This document shows, piece by piece, positions 6,400-58,326 of a stretch of DNA of 64,000 nucleotides (positions are counted from its first letter, which is position 1; every line of letters starts with the position of its first letter). The position numbers and the translations under genes were made by a program. The stretch is from positions 1 to 64,000 of the forward strand of contig MGVE01000009.1 in NCBI GenBank assembly GCA_001800315.1, given 5' to 3'. The notes beneath the pieces are model-generated. The model searched no databases, had not been told where the DNA came from, and saw nothing but the letters and a program-made list of their open reading frames with translations. The stretch is from Elusimicrobia bacterium RIFOXYA2_FULL_47_53. Its GTDB lineage: Bacteria; Elusimicrobiota; Endomicrobiia; Endomicrobiales; XYA2-FULL-47-53.

Positions 6400-6877
6400 T
6401 TTTGGTATTACGCCCGAAACCTTATTCTGGATTCCTGCTGGAGCAGGAATGACTACATTTTTTACAACGAGATTCTTCGCCCGCCACGGCGGACTCAGAA
6501 CGACGGCGTTTTGCAAAACGCAGAGCAAGCTCTGCAACTACAAAGACTTTTATTCTGGATCCCCGACAGAACATTTCGGGGATGACAGACTTGATGGATT
6601 CCAGACAGAACATTTTAAGTAATAAGTTTTAAGTTGTAAGCTTTAAGTGAACGACGGACTTCTTTGTGTCGTCATACCAGCGGAAGCTGGTATCCAGATG
6701 TTTTTCTGGATTCCTGCGTGTGCTCACATCTCGCACCCGTTGCAAGCTTGTGCGGCTTATTCGCCGCACTGCAACTGCAGGAATGACAGCGCTTTATGGA
6801 ACGCGCAGCTGCTTTCTTCGCAGAGCAAGCTCTGCAACTACAAAGACTTTTATTCTGGATCCCCGATAGAACATTCC
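6400..6877. repeat. Mosaic of dispersed palindromic repeats
   Basis: This gap has no convincing gene. It contains GTCAT...ATCCA palindromes at 6428-6453, 6556-6586 and 6671-6697. A segment of about 60 bases at 6452-6511 reappears nearly unchanged at 16430-16489. A direct duplication is also visible: 6519-6580 and 6817-6880 share about 60 bases including GCAGAGCAAGCTCTGC. The AAGTGAACGAC segment near 6650 is the uninterrupted form of the site that an element A copy occupies at 57598. Confidence 0.8.
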
Positions 6878-7205
6878 GGAGCCGCCAGCAAGTCTATGGC
6901 GGCGTCCTTGCAAAACAAAAGTTCCTGAGCCATCATGACTACCCCACCCAGCGAAGGAATTCTGTTTGCGCAAGGCCTTGAGGGTCCGACTTACGCTTCA
7001 AGGAGGACCCTCACGGAGCCGCCAGCAAGTCTATGGCGGCGTCCTTGCAAAACAGAAGTTCCTGAGCCATCATGACTATCCCACCTAGCGAAGGAATTTT
7101 GTTTGCGCAAGGCCTTGAGGGTCCGACTTACGCTTCAGGGAGGACCCTCACGGAGCCGCCAGCAAGTCTATGGCGGCGTCCTTGCAAAACAGAAGTTCCT
7201 GAGCC
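6878..7205. repeat. Tandem direct repeat, 137-base unit, about 2.4 copies
   Basis: Units begin at 6881, 7018 and 7155, exactly 137 bases apart, with only a few differences; the third copy stops after 51 bases, next to the stop of the TPM gene. Each unit contains two hairpins: GCCGCCA/TGGCGGC with a nine-base loop, and GAGGGTCC/GGACCCTC with a loop of about 16 bases. It has no spacer-repeat pattern and no evident coding content. Confidence 0.9.
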
Positions 7206-9537: not shown

Positions 9538-9685
9538 GAGTCAAGTGAAAAACCCTTAAAAATGCCCTGTCATTGCGATCTCCCGAAGGGAGAGAGGCAA
9601 TCTCGCCTCACCATCGGAAACTACGAGATTGCTTCGTCGTTGCACTCCTCGCAAAGACAGACCAAAACACTTTTTCAACTGACTT
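9538..9685. mobile_element. Element A copy 1: MITE-like repeat with terminal inverted repeats
   Basis: A 148-base non-coding unit with ends GAGTCAAGTGAAAAA and TTTTTCAACTGACTT, an imperfect inverted pair. Read on the minus strand, its interior matches the copy at 57598-57741 along the whole length, including the GCAATCTCGT...GCGAGATTGC inner arms. The flanks AAATT and GAATT could be a decayed five-base target duplication. It carries no transposase, so it would move only with an enzyme encoded elsewhere. Confidence 0.82.
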
Positions 9686-16427: not shown

Positions 16428-16715
16428 TGACTACATTTTTTACAACGAGATTCTTCGCCCGCCACAGCGGACTCAGAACGACGGCGTTTTGTGGATTCCG
16501 GACAAAACATTTTAAGCTATAAGTTTTAAGTTGTAAGTTATAAGTGAACGACGCTTCTGTGTCGTCATCCCAGAGGCAGTAATCTGGGATCCACTTCCTT
16601 GAGTCATTAACAAAATGCCATTGTTCTGGATTCCGGACGGAAACTCTCCGGAATGACGGCGTGTAGCGCTTCTGTGTCGTCATCCCAGAGGCAGTAGTCT
16701 GGGATCCAGCCTTTA
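16428..16715. repeat. Mosaic of dispersed palindromic repeats
   Basis: No gene is seen. Bases 16430-16489 repeat 6452-6511. GTCAT...ATCCA-type palindromes occur at 16564-16593, 16627-16657 and 16679-16708, with stems CCCAGA/TCTGGG or TTCCGGA/TCCGGAA. The segment around 16528-16555 is the empty version of the site filled by element A at 57598. Confidence 0.8.
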
Positions 16716-16847
16716 CAGACTGTGTGGCAATGTCATCCTGAGCGTTAGCGAAGGATCGCGAAGTTATTGTTACCATAGAGATGCTTCACTGCGTTCAGCA
16801 TGACAGCAACTCAAAGTCCTCGTTAATGGCAGTTATGACACAGTCTG
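16716..16847. mobile_element. Element C copy 1: MITE-like repeat, TTA target duplication
   Basis: A 132-base non-coding unit with inverted ends CAGACTGTGT and ACACAGTCTG. It is flanked on both sides by TTA (16713-16715 and 16848-16850). A shorter copy at 51909-51982 shares both ends, lacks 58 internal bases and is flanked by GGA on both sides. No transposase is encoded. Confidence 0.85.
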
Positions 16848-16870
16848 TTAGTCTTACTTCTGGATTCCGG

Positions 16871-37142: not shown

Positions 37143-37221
37143 ACAACGCAGCGGGGCTTTAAGCCGGCCCAAATTGAACCAATTTAAAAAGCCTTAATAA
37201 TATCCTGCGAACCCGGAGGAT

Positions 37222-37504
37222 GAGGCAATCTCGTAGTCAAAACGATTCCGTAGTTGCGGAGCTTGCCCTGCGTTTAAGGTAGTAGCGCGGCTTGTCGCGC
37301 GTTCCGTCGGATGCCGCCGTTCCGACACCTGATTTTAACTTTCTTTGGATGCGCAAAGAAAGTTAATAAAGAAACGCACCCCTAAGGCTATTCGTTTGAA
37401 ATATTTCGGCACCTGCGGAACTCGCCCGCCAAAAGACCGGCGGACTCAGACAGTCCTCGCTGAAATCCCCGAAATATTTCTCACTCATGGACAGCCTTAA
37501 AGGG
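37222..37504 (+). repeat. Element D copy 2 with outer flank
   Basis: The core 37323-37504 is the 182-base partner of 17034-17214. It opens with the hairpin AACTTTCTTTG/CAAAGAAAGTT, then an outer stem AAGGCT/AGCCTT, a middle stem GAAATATTTCGG/CCGAAATATTTC and an inner CCGCC/GGCGG. Bases 37222-37322 match the outer flank of the other copy (about 17215-17300, reversed) with an extra insertion of about 28 bases. The rest of the gap to 37568 shows no feature. Confidence 0.8.
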
Positions 37505-51643: not shown

Positions 51644-51699
51644 ATATTTGTGCGCCCCCTAACCCTCAGACAGCACCTGAGGCGTGACGGCGAAGATTT

Positions 51700-51908
51700 T
51701 ACCGTACCTGTAAAGTCACACTGAACGAAGTGAAGGGTCTCGTTTTTTATCCAACGACGAGATTCTTCTCTCCCTGCGGGAGATCAGAACAACGACAACG
51801 ACACAACGAGATTGCTTCGTTCCTCGCAATGACATCCTTTTGTGGATTCCGGACAGAACAATTCCGGAATGACAGCGTGTGGCGCTTTTGTGTCGTCATA
51901 CCAGCGGA
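51700..51908. repeat. Dispersed repeat modules
   Basis: Carries GTCACACTGAACGAAGTGAA, two GAGATT(G)CTTC modules and a palindrome TGGATTCCGG...CCGGAATGAC at 51843-51873. The palindrome that starts near 51897 is split by element C and resumes at 51983. Confidence 0.75.
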
Positions 51909-51982
51909 CAGACTGTGTGGCAATGTCATCCTGCATGACAACAACTCAAAGCCCTCGTTAATGGCAGTTATGACACAGTCTG
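51909..51982. mobile_element. Element C copy 2: internally deleted, GGA target duplication
   Basis: A 74-base unit with the same ends as the 132-base copy at 16716-16847 but without 58 central bases. It is flanked by GGA on both sides (51906-51908, 51983-51985). It splits a palindrome whose uninterrupted form, CATACCAGCGGAAGCTGG, is present at 6673-6690, so the insertion point can be read exactly. Confidence 0.88.
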
Positions 51983-52055
51983 GGAAGCTGGTATCCAGTG
52001 GTTTTTCTGGATCCCAGACTGGACATTTCCGGGATGACAGACTGGCTTTGTGATA

Positions 52056-53561: not shown

Positions 53562-54923
53562 TTAGCCCTTTAGCTTGTATATAGTTCCCCGACCGGTTAC
53601 CCCTACCCTGACAAGAACTTGCTTGCTAACCATATCTTTTAGGTCAATAGTAGCCATAGGTTTTGAAATATCCGTCAATTCTTGATATTGCTTATTCGTT
53701 ATCTTTCCTTTTTCTTTAACATAGGCGACAGCTTTTATCTGTCTTTCGTTAAGGCCAAGCTTTTGCAAGTTCTCTTCAGTATGGGTGTCCTTTGAGAATG
53801 TTATCTGAAAGCCTTTTTGGCGTTCTTTTATGGCCGGGATAGGAACTTCTGCATCGTTGCATAGATGAACCATTTTACCTATACCGCTCCCCCACTGTTC
53901 AATGAATTCAATGTCAAAGAAGACCTTTGCAATTCCCTTGTTTCGTGTATCGGAATCATGCGTCTTAAATAAATCTTCTACGGAAACATTAGGTGCTAAT
54001 CCTCCGGGATTCCATATCTCAAGCCGGTCATCGTGTATTCGTACGCTTATATTGGAAGAAACGAGATAATCTCTGTGACATACGGCATTGATAAGAGCTT
54101 CCCTAATAGCGTCAAGCGGATAATCCCAAACATTTTTACGCCGCGGCTCGCCAGTCATTACAAATTTAACGCTTATGTTCTTTTTGATAAAATCCATCGC
54201 CAAATCTACCTGGTCAATTAATGTTCCCTCAACCATGTCATCATCAATTACAAGCGACTCATTCTTGAATCTTCCGCAATGGATTACTGCCTGTTGTACA
54301 TACCTCATCGGACGCTTGCCAAAAAGAAGCAGGGCGGCCCAGGCAGGAACACCATCTTTGATAAACTCAAGTTTTTTCAATATCTCTAAGACAGTTTCAT
54401 CTTTGGGGATTTTTCGGCGGCCGGTTTCATTGGCAGTATCTCTATATGCAAACACTTTTTTTTCATCTATGTCTTTTAAGGAATATCCTGCGGCTTGAGT
54501 TAAATCCCAGCTCATATCAAGCGACTTATAGTGCATATCGGCGATTTCTTGCGGGGTCATCAAGCGGTTGCTGTTCTTAACCCTTCTAAAGCACTTACCC
54601 TTAATAGCTACGGGCTTAATGGGGCATTCTTTAATAGTGATAACTGCGATGATTTTATTGTCAACGGTAAGTTGCTCTACATCGGGGATTACGCGGGGAT
54701 TGCTTGCTTGGGTGATCTGGTTTATCCAATCGTTTATGGTTTCTTTGCCAATCTGAATTCCTTTTATTGTGCCATTGTCTGAGACACCTACTATAATGGT
54801 ACCGCCTTTGGAATTAGAAAACGCCCCGGCAGTTTCTACGGCCTCTCTGTCGAAGCTTTCTTTGAAGTCCAATGTCTCGGACTCACCCTTGCTAATGATT
54901 ACTTTAAGTTCTTCCGGTGTCAT
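53562..54923 (-). CDS. AlbA_2 / ATP-binding transcriptional regulator-like protein
   Basis: The 453-residue protein has an N-terminal AlbA_2 (Schlafen-type) domain (about 1-125, with ETLDFKESF, FSNSKGGTIIVGVSDNG and CFRRVKNSNR), a C-terminal helicase-like ATP-binding region (about 230-370, with REALINAVCHRDY and EQWGSGIGKM) and a winged helix at the end. Such proteins are often annotated as RecG-like or as transcriptional regulators, and some belong to defence islands. No toxin or nuclease partner is next to it. It is more A+T-rich than average and stands alone with its own promoter. Confidence 0.82.
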   Translation of the reverse strand: MTPEELKVIISKGESETLDFKESFDREAVETAGAFSNSKGGTIIVGVSDNGTIKGIQIGKETINDWINQITQASNPRVIPDVEQLTVDNKIIAVITIKECPIKPVAIKGKCFRRVKNSNRLMTPQEIADMHYKSLDMSWDLTQAAGYSLKDIDEKKVFAYRDTANETGRRKIPKDETVLEILKKLEFIKDGVPAWAALLLFGKRPMRYVQQAVIHCGRFKNESLVIDDDMVEGTLIDQVDLAMDFIKKNISVKFVMTGEPRRKNVWDYPLDAIREALINAVCHRDYLVSSNISVRIHDDRLEIWNPGGLAPNVSVEDLFKTHDSDTRNKGIAKVFFDIEFIEQWGSGIGKMVHLCNDAEVPIPAIKERQKGFQITFSKDTHTEENLQKLGLNERQIKAVAYVKEKGKITNKQYQELTDISKPMATIDLKDMVSKQVLVRVGVTGRGTIYKLKG

Positions 54924-55039: not shown

Positions 55040-55068
55040 TTTTTCAATTGACTCAAATATTGTATAAT
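55040..55068 (+). promoter_or_regulatory. Amidase promoter built on a solo element A end
   Basis: TTTTTCAATTGACTC (55040-55054) is identical to the right end of element A, with no matching left end nearby. TATAAT at 55063-55068 follows, and the amidase ATG begins eight bases after it. TTTTCA inside the element end could act as a weak -35 with a 16-base spacer. Confidence 0.5.
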
Positions 55069-57290: not shown

Positions 57291-57592
57291 CTGATTATAA
57301 CTTTCTTTGAACGCGCAAAGATAGTAAGTAAAGAAACTTGCGACGCCTCACCATCTCGGACCGGCCGTCATTCCAGAAATGTTCTGTCTGGAATCCAGAA
57401 CAATGGCATTTTATTAATGACTCAAAGAAGTGGATCCCAGACTACTACCTCTGGGATGACGACACAAACTAGTCTGTCATCCCTACCCCCGATTGCGGCA
57501 CTTGAGGGCAAACTCCAGCAGGGATCCAGAAAAACCTCTGGATACCAGCTTCTGCTGGTATGACGACACGAAGAAGTTCGCCGTTCACTTAT
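57291..57592. repeat. Mosaic of dispersed repeats, including an element D fragment
   Basis: Bases 57291-57342 match the opening of element D (CTTTCTTTG...GCAAAG...AAAGAAAC). GTCAT...ATCCA-type palindromes occur at 57367-57398, 57431-57460 and 57539-57564. Bases 57385-57460 match 16560-16640 reversed. No gene is seen. Confidence 0.78.
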
Positions 57593-57597
57593 AACTT

Positions 57598-57741
57598 GAG
57601 TCAATTGAAAAAGTGTTTCAGGCCGTCTTTGCGAGGAGCGCAACGACGCGGCAATCTCGTCGTTCCCGACGGAAAAGCGAGATTGCTTCACCCTGCGGGC
57701 TCGCAATGACAGGGTCTAATTAAGGGTTTTTCAATTGACTC
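57598..57741. mobile_element. Element A copy 2: MITE-like, perfect ends, 5-base target duplication
   Basis: A 144-base non-coding unit with perfect inverted ends GAGTCAATTGAAAAA and TTTTTCAATTGACTC. It is flanked by AACTT on both sides (57593-57597 and 57742-57746). Removing the unit and one AACTT restores a sequence present uninterrupted at 16528-16555 (minus strand: CACTTATAACTTACAACTTA). Filled and empty sites are therefore both visible. Confidence 0.92.
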
Positions 57742-57746
57742 AACTT

Positions 57747-58104
57747 ACAACTTACATCTTAAAACTTATTACTTAAAATATTCTGTCCGGAATCCACAAA
57801 CGCCGTCATTGTGATCTTCCGCAGGGAGATAATATTCTCGTCGTTTGAGGAAAAACGAGACCCTTCACTTCGCTCAGGGTGACTTTATATGTCTGATGAA
57901 ATCTTCACCGGCAGGCATGGGCTCTATCCGAGGATTAGGGGATCTGGAGTATGCTTGACTAAAACCTGCTATTTATATAGAATCTCACAGTCAAGCCGAA
58001 TTGAAAACTATAACAATATATGTATGCCGAGGTGTCCGCCACTACTGCGGGCGGATTTGCTTCACCAACTGCTTCCGCAGTTGGTTCCTTGAATATTATA
58101 GATT
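57747..58104. repeat. Dispersed repeat modules, no gene
   Basis: Bases 57747-57900 contain the reversed TTAAGT-rich module, a TCCGGAATCCAC half-palindrome and the reversed AACGAGACCCTTCACTTCGC module, matching 31750 and 51720. Bases 57900-58104 contain only short hairpins (CCGCCACTACTGCGGGCGG; CCAACTGCTTCCGCAGTTGG). Confidence 0.65.
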
Positions 58105-58269
58105 GAGTCAATTGAAAAAGCCTGTTTCAGGAGCGAAATTTTGGGCTTTGTGCCGAGGCAAGGCGGCCGAAGCGAGCATATGCTCCACGGAGTATATGTA
58201 AACTGAGGACAACGAAGCCGCAGGCCAAAGGCCGAAATTGCAGCCCGAAAGAGGTTTTTCAACTGACTC
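58105..58269. mobile_element. Element A ends around an element B-like core
   Basis: A 165-base unit with ends GAGTCAATTGAAAAA and TTTTTCAACTGACTC like element A. Its interior is unlike the other A copies; it has GCCGAGGCAAGGCGGCCGAAGC and a hairpin CATATGCTCC/GGAGTATATG, the same layout as element B (GAGGC blocks, then a stem, then a TTGAG/CTGAG segment). The flanks AGATT and AGAGA do not form a clean duplication. Confidence 0.75.
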
Positions 58270-58326
58270 AGAGAAGTTACAGTGTGCGGTTATCTGACAA
58301 GCTAATCAAACAAAAAATAGTTTATT

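What the first reader, a model, noticed from the sequence alone, without database searches (positions are those of the whole stretch)
57593..57746. Element A: MITE-like insertion with its empty site in the same window
A 144-base unit with perfect 15-base inverted ends is flanked by AACTT on both sides. The same host repeat is present without the insertion at 16528-16555, with AACTT once. This shows real insertion with a five-base target duplication. A second full copy (9538-9685) lies in inverted orientation. No transposase is present, so a helper enzyme must act in trans.
Basis: seen in the sequence. Interest (0 to 1): 0.75.

Follow-up and report, generated by a model that had tools for sequence, protein, structure and literature searches.

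The report
MITE family carrying REP palindromes
The 144-base insert is a real small transposon without its own enzyme, one of about 40 in this uncultured bacterium, and in relatives the same ends carry other hairpin repeats, a class of repeats whose means of spreading is an open question.

Summary
Window 57598-57741 (144 bp) has perfect 15-bp inverted ends, GAGTCAATTGAAAAA, flanked by AACTT; the host repeat stands empty at 16520-16553. Genome-wide there are 103 such ends against 1 for the reversed pattern. Of 42 paired elements, 20 have a perfect 5-bp target duplication (4.4 expected); 18 of those fit AANTT (0.6% of 5-mers). Two copies in a relative fix the length at 5 bp. There are two subfamilies: A (about 150 bp, diverged) and B (169 bp; nine copies 94-100% like consensus, so recent). 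This is a MITE. No autonomous partner was found.

The same ends and 5-bp duplication recur in three other families of class Endomicrobiia (Elusimicrobiota) with different interiors. Most interiors hold CGTC-type REP palindromes, for which the literature reports no dedicated transposase. In 400 kb of one relative, 22 of 50 such REPs lie between facing ends (0.45% expected), and 13 of 14 end pairs contain one. So this MITE shell is a plausible vehicle for CGTC REPs. Many REPs in this window lie free of it, so it is not the only one.

The parts
57593..57597 (.). left target duplication AACTT
57598..57741 (+). element A, 144 bp, perfect 15-bp terminal inverted repeats GAGTCAATTGAAAAA; folds as one long hairpin
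57682..57711 (-). CGTC-type REP unit (tag TGTC) inside element A
57742..57746 (.). right target duplication AACTT
9538..9685 (-). second A copy, 148 bp, imperfect ends, flanks AAATT/GAATT; holds a CGTC-type REP at 9568-9601
58105..58269 (+). element B (169 bp counted with the outer TT/AA-type bases, 58103-58271), same ends as A, flanks AGATT/AGAGA, 56 bp upstream of a tRNA gene
16520..16553 (-). unfilled paralogous host repeat: array of ACTTANN 7-mers with AACTT targets
55040..55056 (-). lone end TTGAGTCAATTGAAAAA, 20 bp before the start of the amidase gene
37174..37235 (+). decayed A-type end (3 mismatches) followed by A-like sequence

Best explanation
Element A is a non-autonomous DNA transposon (MITE). 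A transposase supplied in trans recognises GAGTCARTTGAAAAA at both ends and makes a 5-bp staggered cut at an AANTT target; gap repair duplicates those 5 bp. Shown from sequence: conserved ends, 5-bp duplication, AANTT preference, empty paralogous site, repeated transposition (old A, recent B). Inferred: a DDE-type enzyme, because inverted ends with a fixed short duplication are typical of that class; the enzyme itself is unknown. Whatever lies between the ends is carried along. In class Endomicrobiia this cargo is often a pair of CGTC-type REP palindromes with tags facing outward, so the shell spreads REPs. That shells losing their ends leave free REPs is inferred only.
For: 103 end matches against 1 control; 42 delimited elements, 20 perfect 5-bp duplications against 4.4 expected, agreement at chance beyond 5 bp; 18 of 20 fit AANTT, 0.6% of 5-mers; copies with AAAGA/AAAGA and TGATT/TGATT fix the length at 5 bp; nine B copies 94-100% like consensus and two A copies 98.7% alike at different sites; same ends and duplications in G328, G003, G329 with other interiors; REPs enriched between facing ends: 22 of 50 against 0.45% at random in G328.
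Against: No transposase with these ends was found, so mobility is read from footprints only. In G000 only 2 of 17 REPs lie between facing ends, and 20 of 50 in G328 have no end nearby, so the shell is not the only carrier. Subfamily B carries no CGTC REP recognised here.
Confidence: 0.95

Rival explanations
1. The shell palindrome is only a landing site: REP units enter existing GAGTCAATTGAAAAA palindromes, and REPs move by their own Y1 (RAYT-like) enzyme while the shell is passive.
For: Y1_Tnp genes are present in G000 (5), G003 (8), G002 (15) and G328 (1); one lies beside an array of CGTC-type repeats. REP dimers inside palindromes were read as insertions into the palindrome in other bacteria (PMC3733652).
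Against: The 5-bp duplication flanks the outer ends, so the shell itself inserts. Near-identical shell-plus-interior copies lie at different sites. Later entry of REPs into shells is not excluded as an extra process.
Confidence: 0.15
2. The ends are not transposon ends but a conserved regulatory or terminator hairpin kept by selection; flanking AT-rich matches are coincidence.
For: Most copies are intergenic, 33 of 42 between tandem genes by simple ORF calls, and element A folds as a strong hairpin, z -7.5.
Against: Shuffling flanks among copies keeps their base composition and gives 4.4 perfect matches, not 20; agreement stops at 5 bp. A regulatory effect could be added but does not explain the duplication.
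Confidence: 0.02
3. The elements are deletion derivatives of a known IS family still present in the genome (type I MITEs).
For: This is the usual origin of bacterial MITEs (PMC10969869).
Against: No IS with these ends found; DDE_Tnp_1 and rve absent in G000, IS1380-, IS701- and Tn3-type domains absent in five carriers, the IS1182-type gene in G002 lacks the ends. Several families were not tested.
Confidence: 0.3

Closest known systems
Prokaryotic MITEs (review PMC10969869), for example Chunjie of Geobacter uraniireducens and QMITE2 of Coxiella burnetii
   Same: Under 500 bp, no gene, terminal inverted repeats, flanking direct repeats, intergenic, hairpin-forming, tens of copies with decayed derivatives.
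   Different: Here the interiors differ between genomes while the ends stay the same, most interiors are CGTC-type REP pairs, and no IS source was found.
CGTC-type REPs (PMC3733652), including dRS3 of Neisseria and RPE-4/RPE-6 of Rickettsia
   Same: Cargo units have the CGTC/TGTC tag, AT at the stem start, short loop and CCA-like tail.
   Different: Those repeats were described without end repeats or a transposase; here many lie between transposon ends with a 5-bp duplication.
REP dimers enclosed in palindromes in Halothiobacillus neapolitanus and Anabaena variabilis (PMC3733652, section on association with other repeats)
   Same: A REP pair enclosed in a longer palindrome; empty palindromes were not found there.
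   Different: There read as insertion of the REP into the palindrome; no target duplication is reported in the text read. Here the duplication shows that the outer unit moves.
REPINs moved by RAYT (Y1) transposases
   Same: Two inverted REPs, spread by an enzyme in trans; Y1 genes exist in these genomes.
   Different: The tag here is CGTC/TGTC rather than GTAG, a 5-bp duplication is present, and the Y1 genes examined lack these ends.

Membership tests
MITE | short (<500 bp), no coding capacity | tested here: met
   Almost all delimited elements are 62-290 bp; element A is 144 bp. The two longest pairings in the raw list (608 and 663 bp) are composite or uncertain.
MITE | terminal inverted repeats shared by many copies | tested here: met
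   103 matches to the end against 1 control; 42 facing pairs
MITE | target-site duplication of fixed length | tested here: met
   5 bp; 20 of 42 perfect against 4.4 expected; AAAGA/AAAGA and TGATT/TGATT
MITE | autonomous partner with the same ends (in the genome or a relative) | tested here: inconclusive
   None found; not every transposase family was searched
CGTC-type REP (cargo) | CGTC/TGTC tag, stem starting AT, short loop, CCA-like tail | tested here: met
   For many cargo units in G328 and G003. Element A units are longer-looped and end in CTC, so the fit is looser there.
CGTC-type REP (cargo) | not associated with a transposon | tested here: not met
   22 of 50 in G328 lie between facing MITE ends
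REPIN/RAYT system | GTAG-tagged REP pair next to a RAYT gene, no target duplication | tested here: not met
   Tag is CGTC/TGTC; duplication present; Y1 genes examined lack these ends
Tn3-family miniature elements | 5-bp duplication with long (about 38-bp) ends starting GGGG, and a Tn3 transposase | tested here: not met
   Ends are 15 bp starting GAGTC; no Tn3 transposase domain in five carriers

The most novel reading that the evidence does not exclude
CGTC-type REPs, reported to lack a transposase of their own, are spread in at least one bacterial class as cargo of TIR-bounded MITE shells moved by an unidentified transposase with a 5-bp AANTT target; the REP-in-palindrome structures noted in Halothiobacillus and Anabaena would be the same phenomenon.
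Probability: 0.35. Interest if true: 0.7.

Novelty: new variant of a known kind. Interest (0 to 1): 0.45.

Why it matters
The MITE itself is ordinary in kind. The cargo matters more: it offers a testable route by which CGTC REPs multiply, a question left open in 2013 (PMC3733652). There is also a recently active element (nine near-identical B copies) whose enzyme could not be found. That makes these genomes a place to look for a new transposase, or one not linked to its ends.

Tried and rejected
Duplication of 1 or 3 bp instead of 5: rejected by copies whose terminal bases differ (AAAGA/AAAGA, TGATT/TGATT). Autonomous element as facing ends 0.6-4 kb apart: only neighbouring MITEs or chance pairs. 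Autonomous element hidden in assembly gaps: contig ends share short overlaps with other repeats, among them IS-like ends beginning GGTARTGT, but no contig end examined starts in a GAGTCAATTGAAAAA end. Lone ends leading to a transposase: they lead to an amidase gene and other ORFs that do not look like transposases. Exact search of 85,000 genomes: 36 hits, judged to be about the chance level; only Endomicrobiia Yes70-21 has facing ends with a duplication. Viral contigs: one hit without a partner. A test of REPs near ends with 4 mismatches allowed was too lax (16-33% of random positions) and was replaced by a stricter one. An early extraction assumed that minus-strand loci were turned, which was wrong; it was redone with all loci on the plus strand.

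Full report
What was checked. The window lies in a 2.41-Mb, 20-contig genome (G000) of class Endomicrobiia, phylum Elusimicrobiota. This is inferred: G329, placed in the same class as G000, contains the same DNA as JASEHK010000036, 'Endomicrobiia bacterium Yes70-21'. Element A is exactly as described: AACTT, 144 bp with perfect 15-bp inverted ends, AACTT. The host repeat is an array of ACTTANN 7-mers, unfilled at 16520-16553. AACTT recurs in that array, so this one locus alone could be doubted, but the family removes the doubt.

Family in this genome. A BLAST search with element A gives 55 matches, and the end sequence 103 matches with up to 2 mismatches against 1 for the reversed pattern. Forty-two elements could be delimited. 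Twenty have identical 5-mers on both sides; shuffling the right flanks among copies gives 4.4 on average and never more than 11 in 2000 trials. The central base agrees in 35 of 42 against 11.9 expected, and agreement is at chance level beyond the 5 bp. Eighteen of the 20 perfect duplications fit AANTT, which makes up 0.6% of 5-mers in 304 kb of this genome. Because AANTT starts with AA and ends in TT, the TT...AA next to the ends could be taken as part of the element and the duplication as 1 or 3 bp. Two copies in relative G328, AAAGA/AAAGA and TGATT/TGATT, settle it as 5 bp with the element starting at GAGTC.

Subfamilies and age. Subfamily A is mostly about 144-152 bp, longer (about 177 bp) where a 27-bp palindrome is inserted. 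Its copies are diverged, though two are 98.7% alike at different sites. Subfamily B is 169 bp; nine of ten copies are 94-100% identical to their consensus, so transposition is recent on the scale of this lineage. A and B share ends and some left linkers. Most copies are intergenic; three were called inside ORFs by a simple ORF caller, which may include false starts.

Relatives. Among 58 relatives searched first, none shows a burst. Across 340 genomes of the phylum only a few carry the ends above chance: G328 strongly (28 ends), G003, and singly G329 and G002. In G328 the elements are 136-288 bp, in G003 137 bp and in G329 111 bp, with good duplications but different interiors.

Cargo. Most interiors contain CGTC-type REP palindromes as described by Di Nocera et al. 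(PMC3733652): CGTC/TGTC tag, stem starting AT, short loop, CCA-like tail. The window has 17 such units against 0 in the reversed sequence. In 400 kb of G328 taken as consecutive stretches, 22 of 50 REPs lie between facing ends, against 0.45% of random positions, and 13 of 14 facing-end pairs hold at least one REP. In 160 kb of G003, partly chosen around known ends, it is 4 of 5. In 304 kb of G000 including the window it is 2 of 17. So the shell is a major carrier in G328, but not the only home of these repeats. [quoted passage not shown]

The missing enzyme. No end leads into a recognisable transposase gene: not in facing pairs, not at the contig ends examined, not at the lone ends examined in G000 and G328. 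DDE_Tnp_1 and rve are absent from G000. IS1380-, IS701- and Tn3-type domains are absent from all five carriers. An IS1182-type gene in G002 lacks these ends. Y1 transposases are present but are not known to leave a 5-bp duplication (general knowledge). Several families remain untested, so 'absent' means not found with these tools.

Judgement. That this is a MITE with a 5-bp AANTT target duplication is nearly certain. That the enzyme is of DDE type is an inference from the duplication and the inverted ends. That shells spread CGTC REPs is well supported for G328 and plausible as a wider rule, but not shown beyond this class.

Noticed in passing
window 16488-16850, 51682-52050, 57344-57597, 6435-6720: Intergenic mosaics of several CGTC-type REPs and other repeats, largely the same blocks in the same order at four places, outside any MITE ends.
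   Followed up: partly
window 6877-7205: A 137-bp unit repeated in tandem about 2.4 times, 96-98% identical.
   Followed up: no
window 53562-54923 and 55040-55056: An AlbA_2 (Schlafen-type) plus RecG-C-terminal-like ATPase gene, divergent from an amidase gene, with a lone MITE end between them close to the amidase start.
   Followed up: partly
G000 contig ends C3, C16, C18, C20 (left or right) and C1, C18: Contigs break in a repeat with IS-like ends (GGTARTGT...GTGTGTAA), possibly an IS256-type element judged from its ends only.
   Followed up: no
L250 1462-2124 with repeats at 543-1205: A Y1 (RAYT-like) transposase gene stands beside a cluster of several CGTC-type repeats, although CGTC repeats are reported not to flank such genes.
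   Followed up: partly
L197 1427-1613 (G328): A second REP-like hairpin sits within the stem-loop of another REP inside a MITE, suggesting nested insertion of REPs.
   Followed up: no
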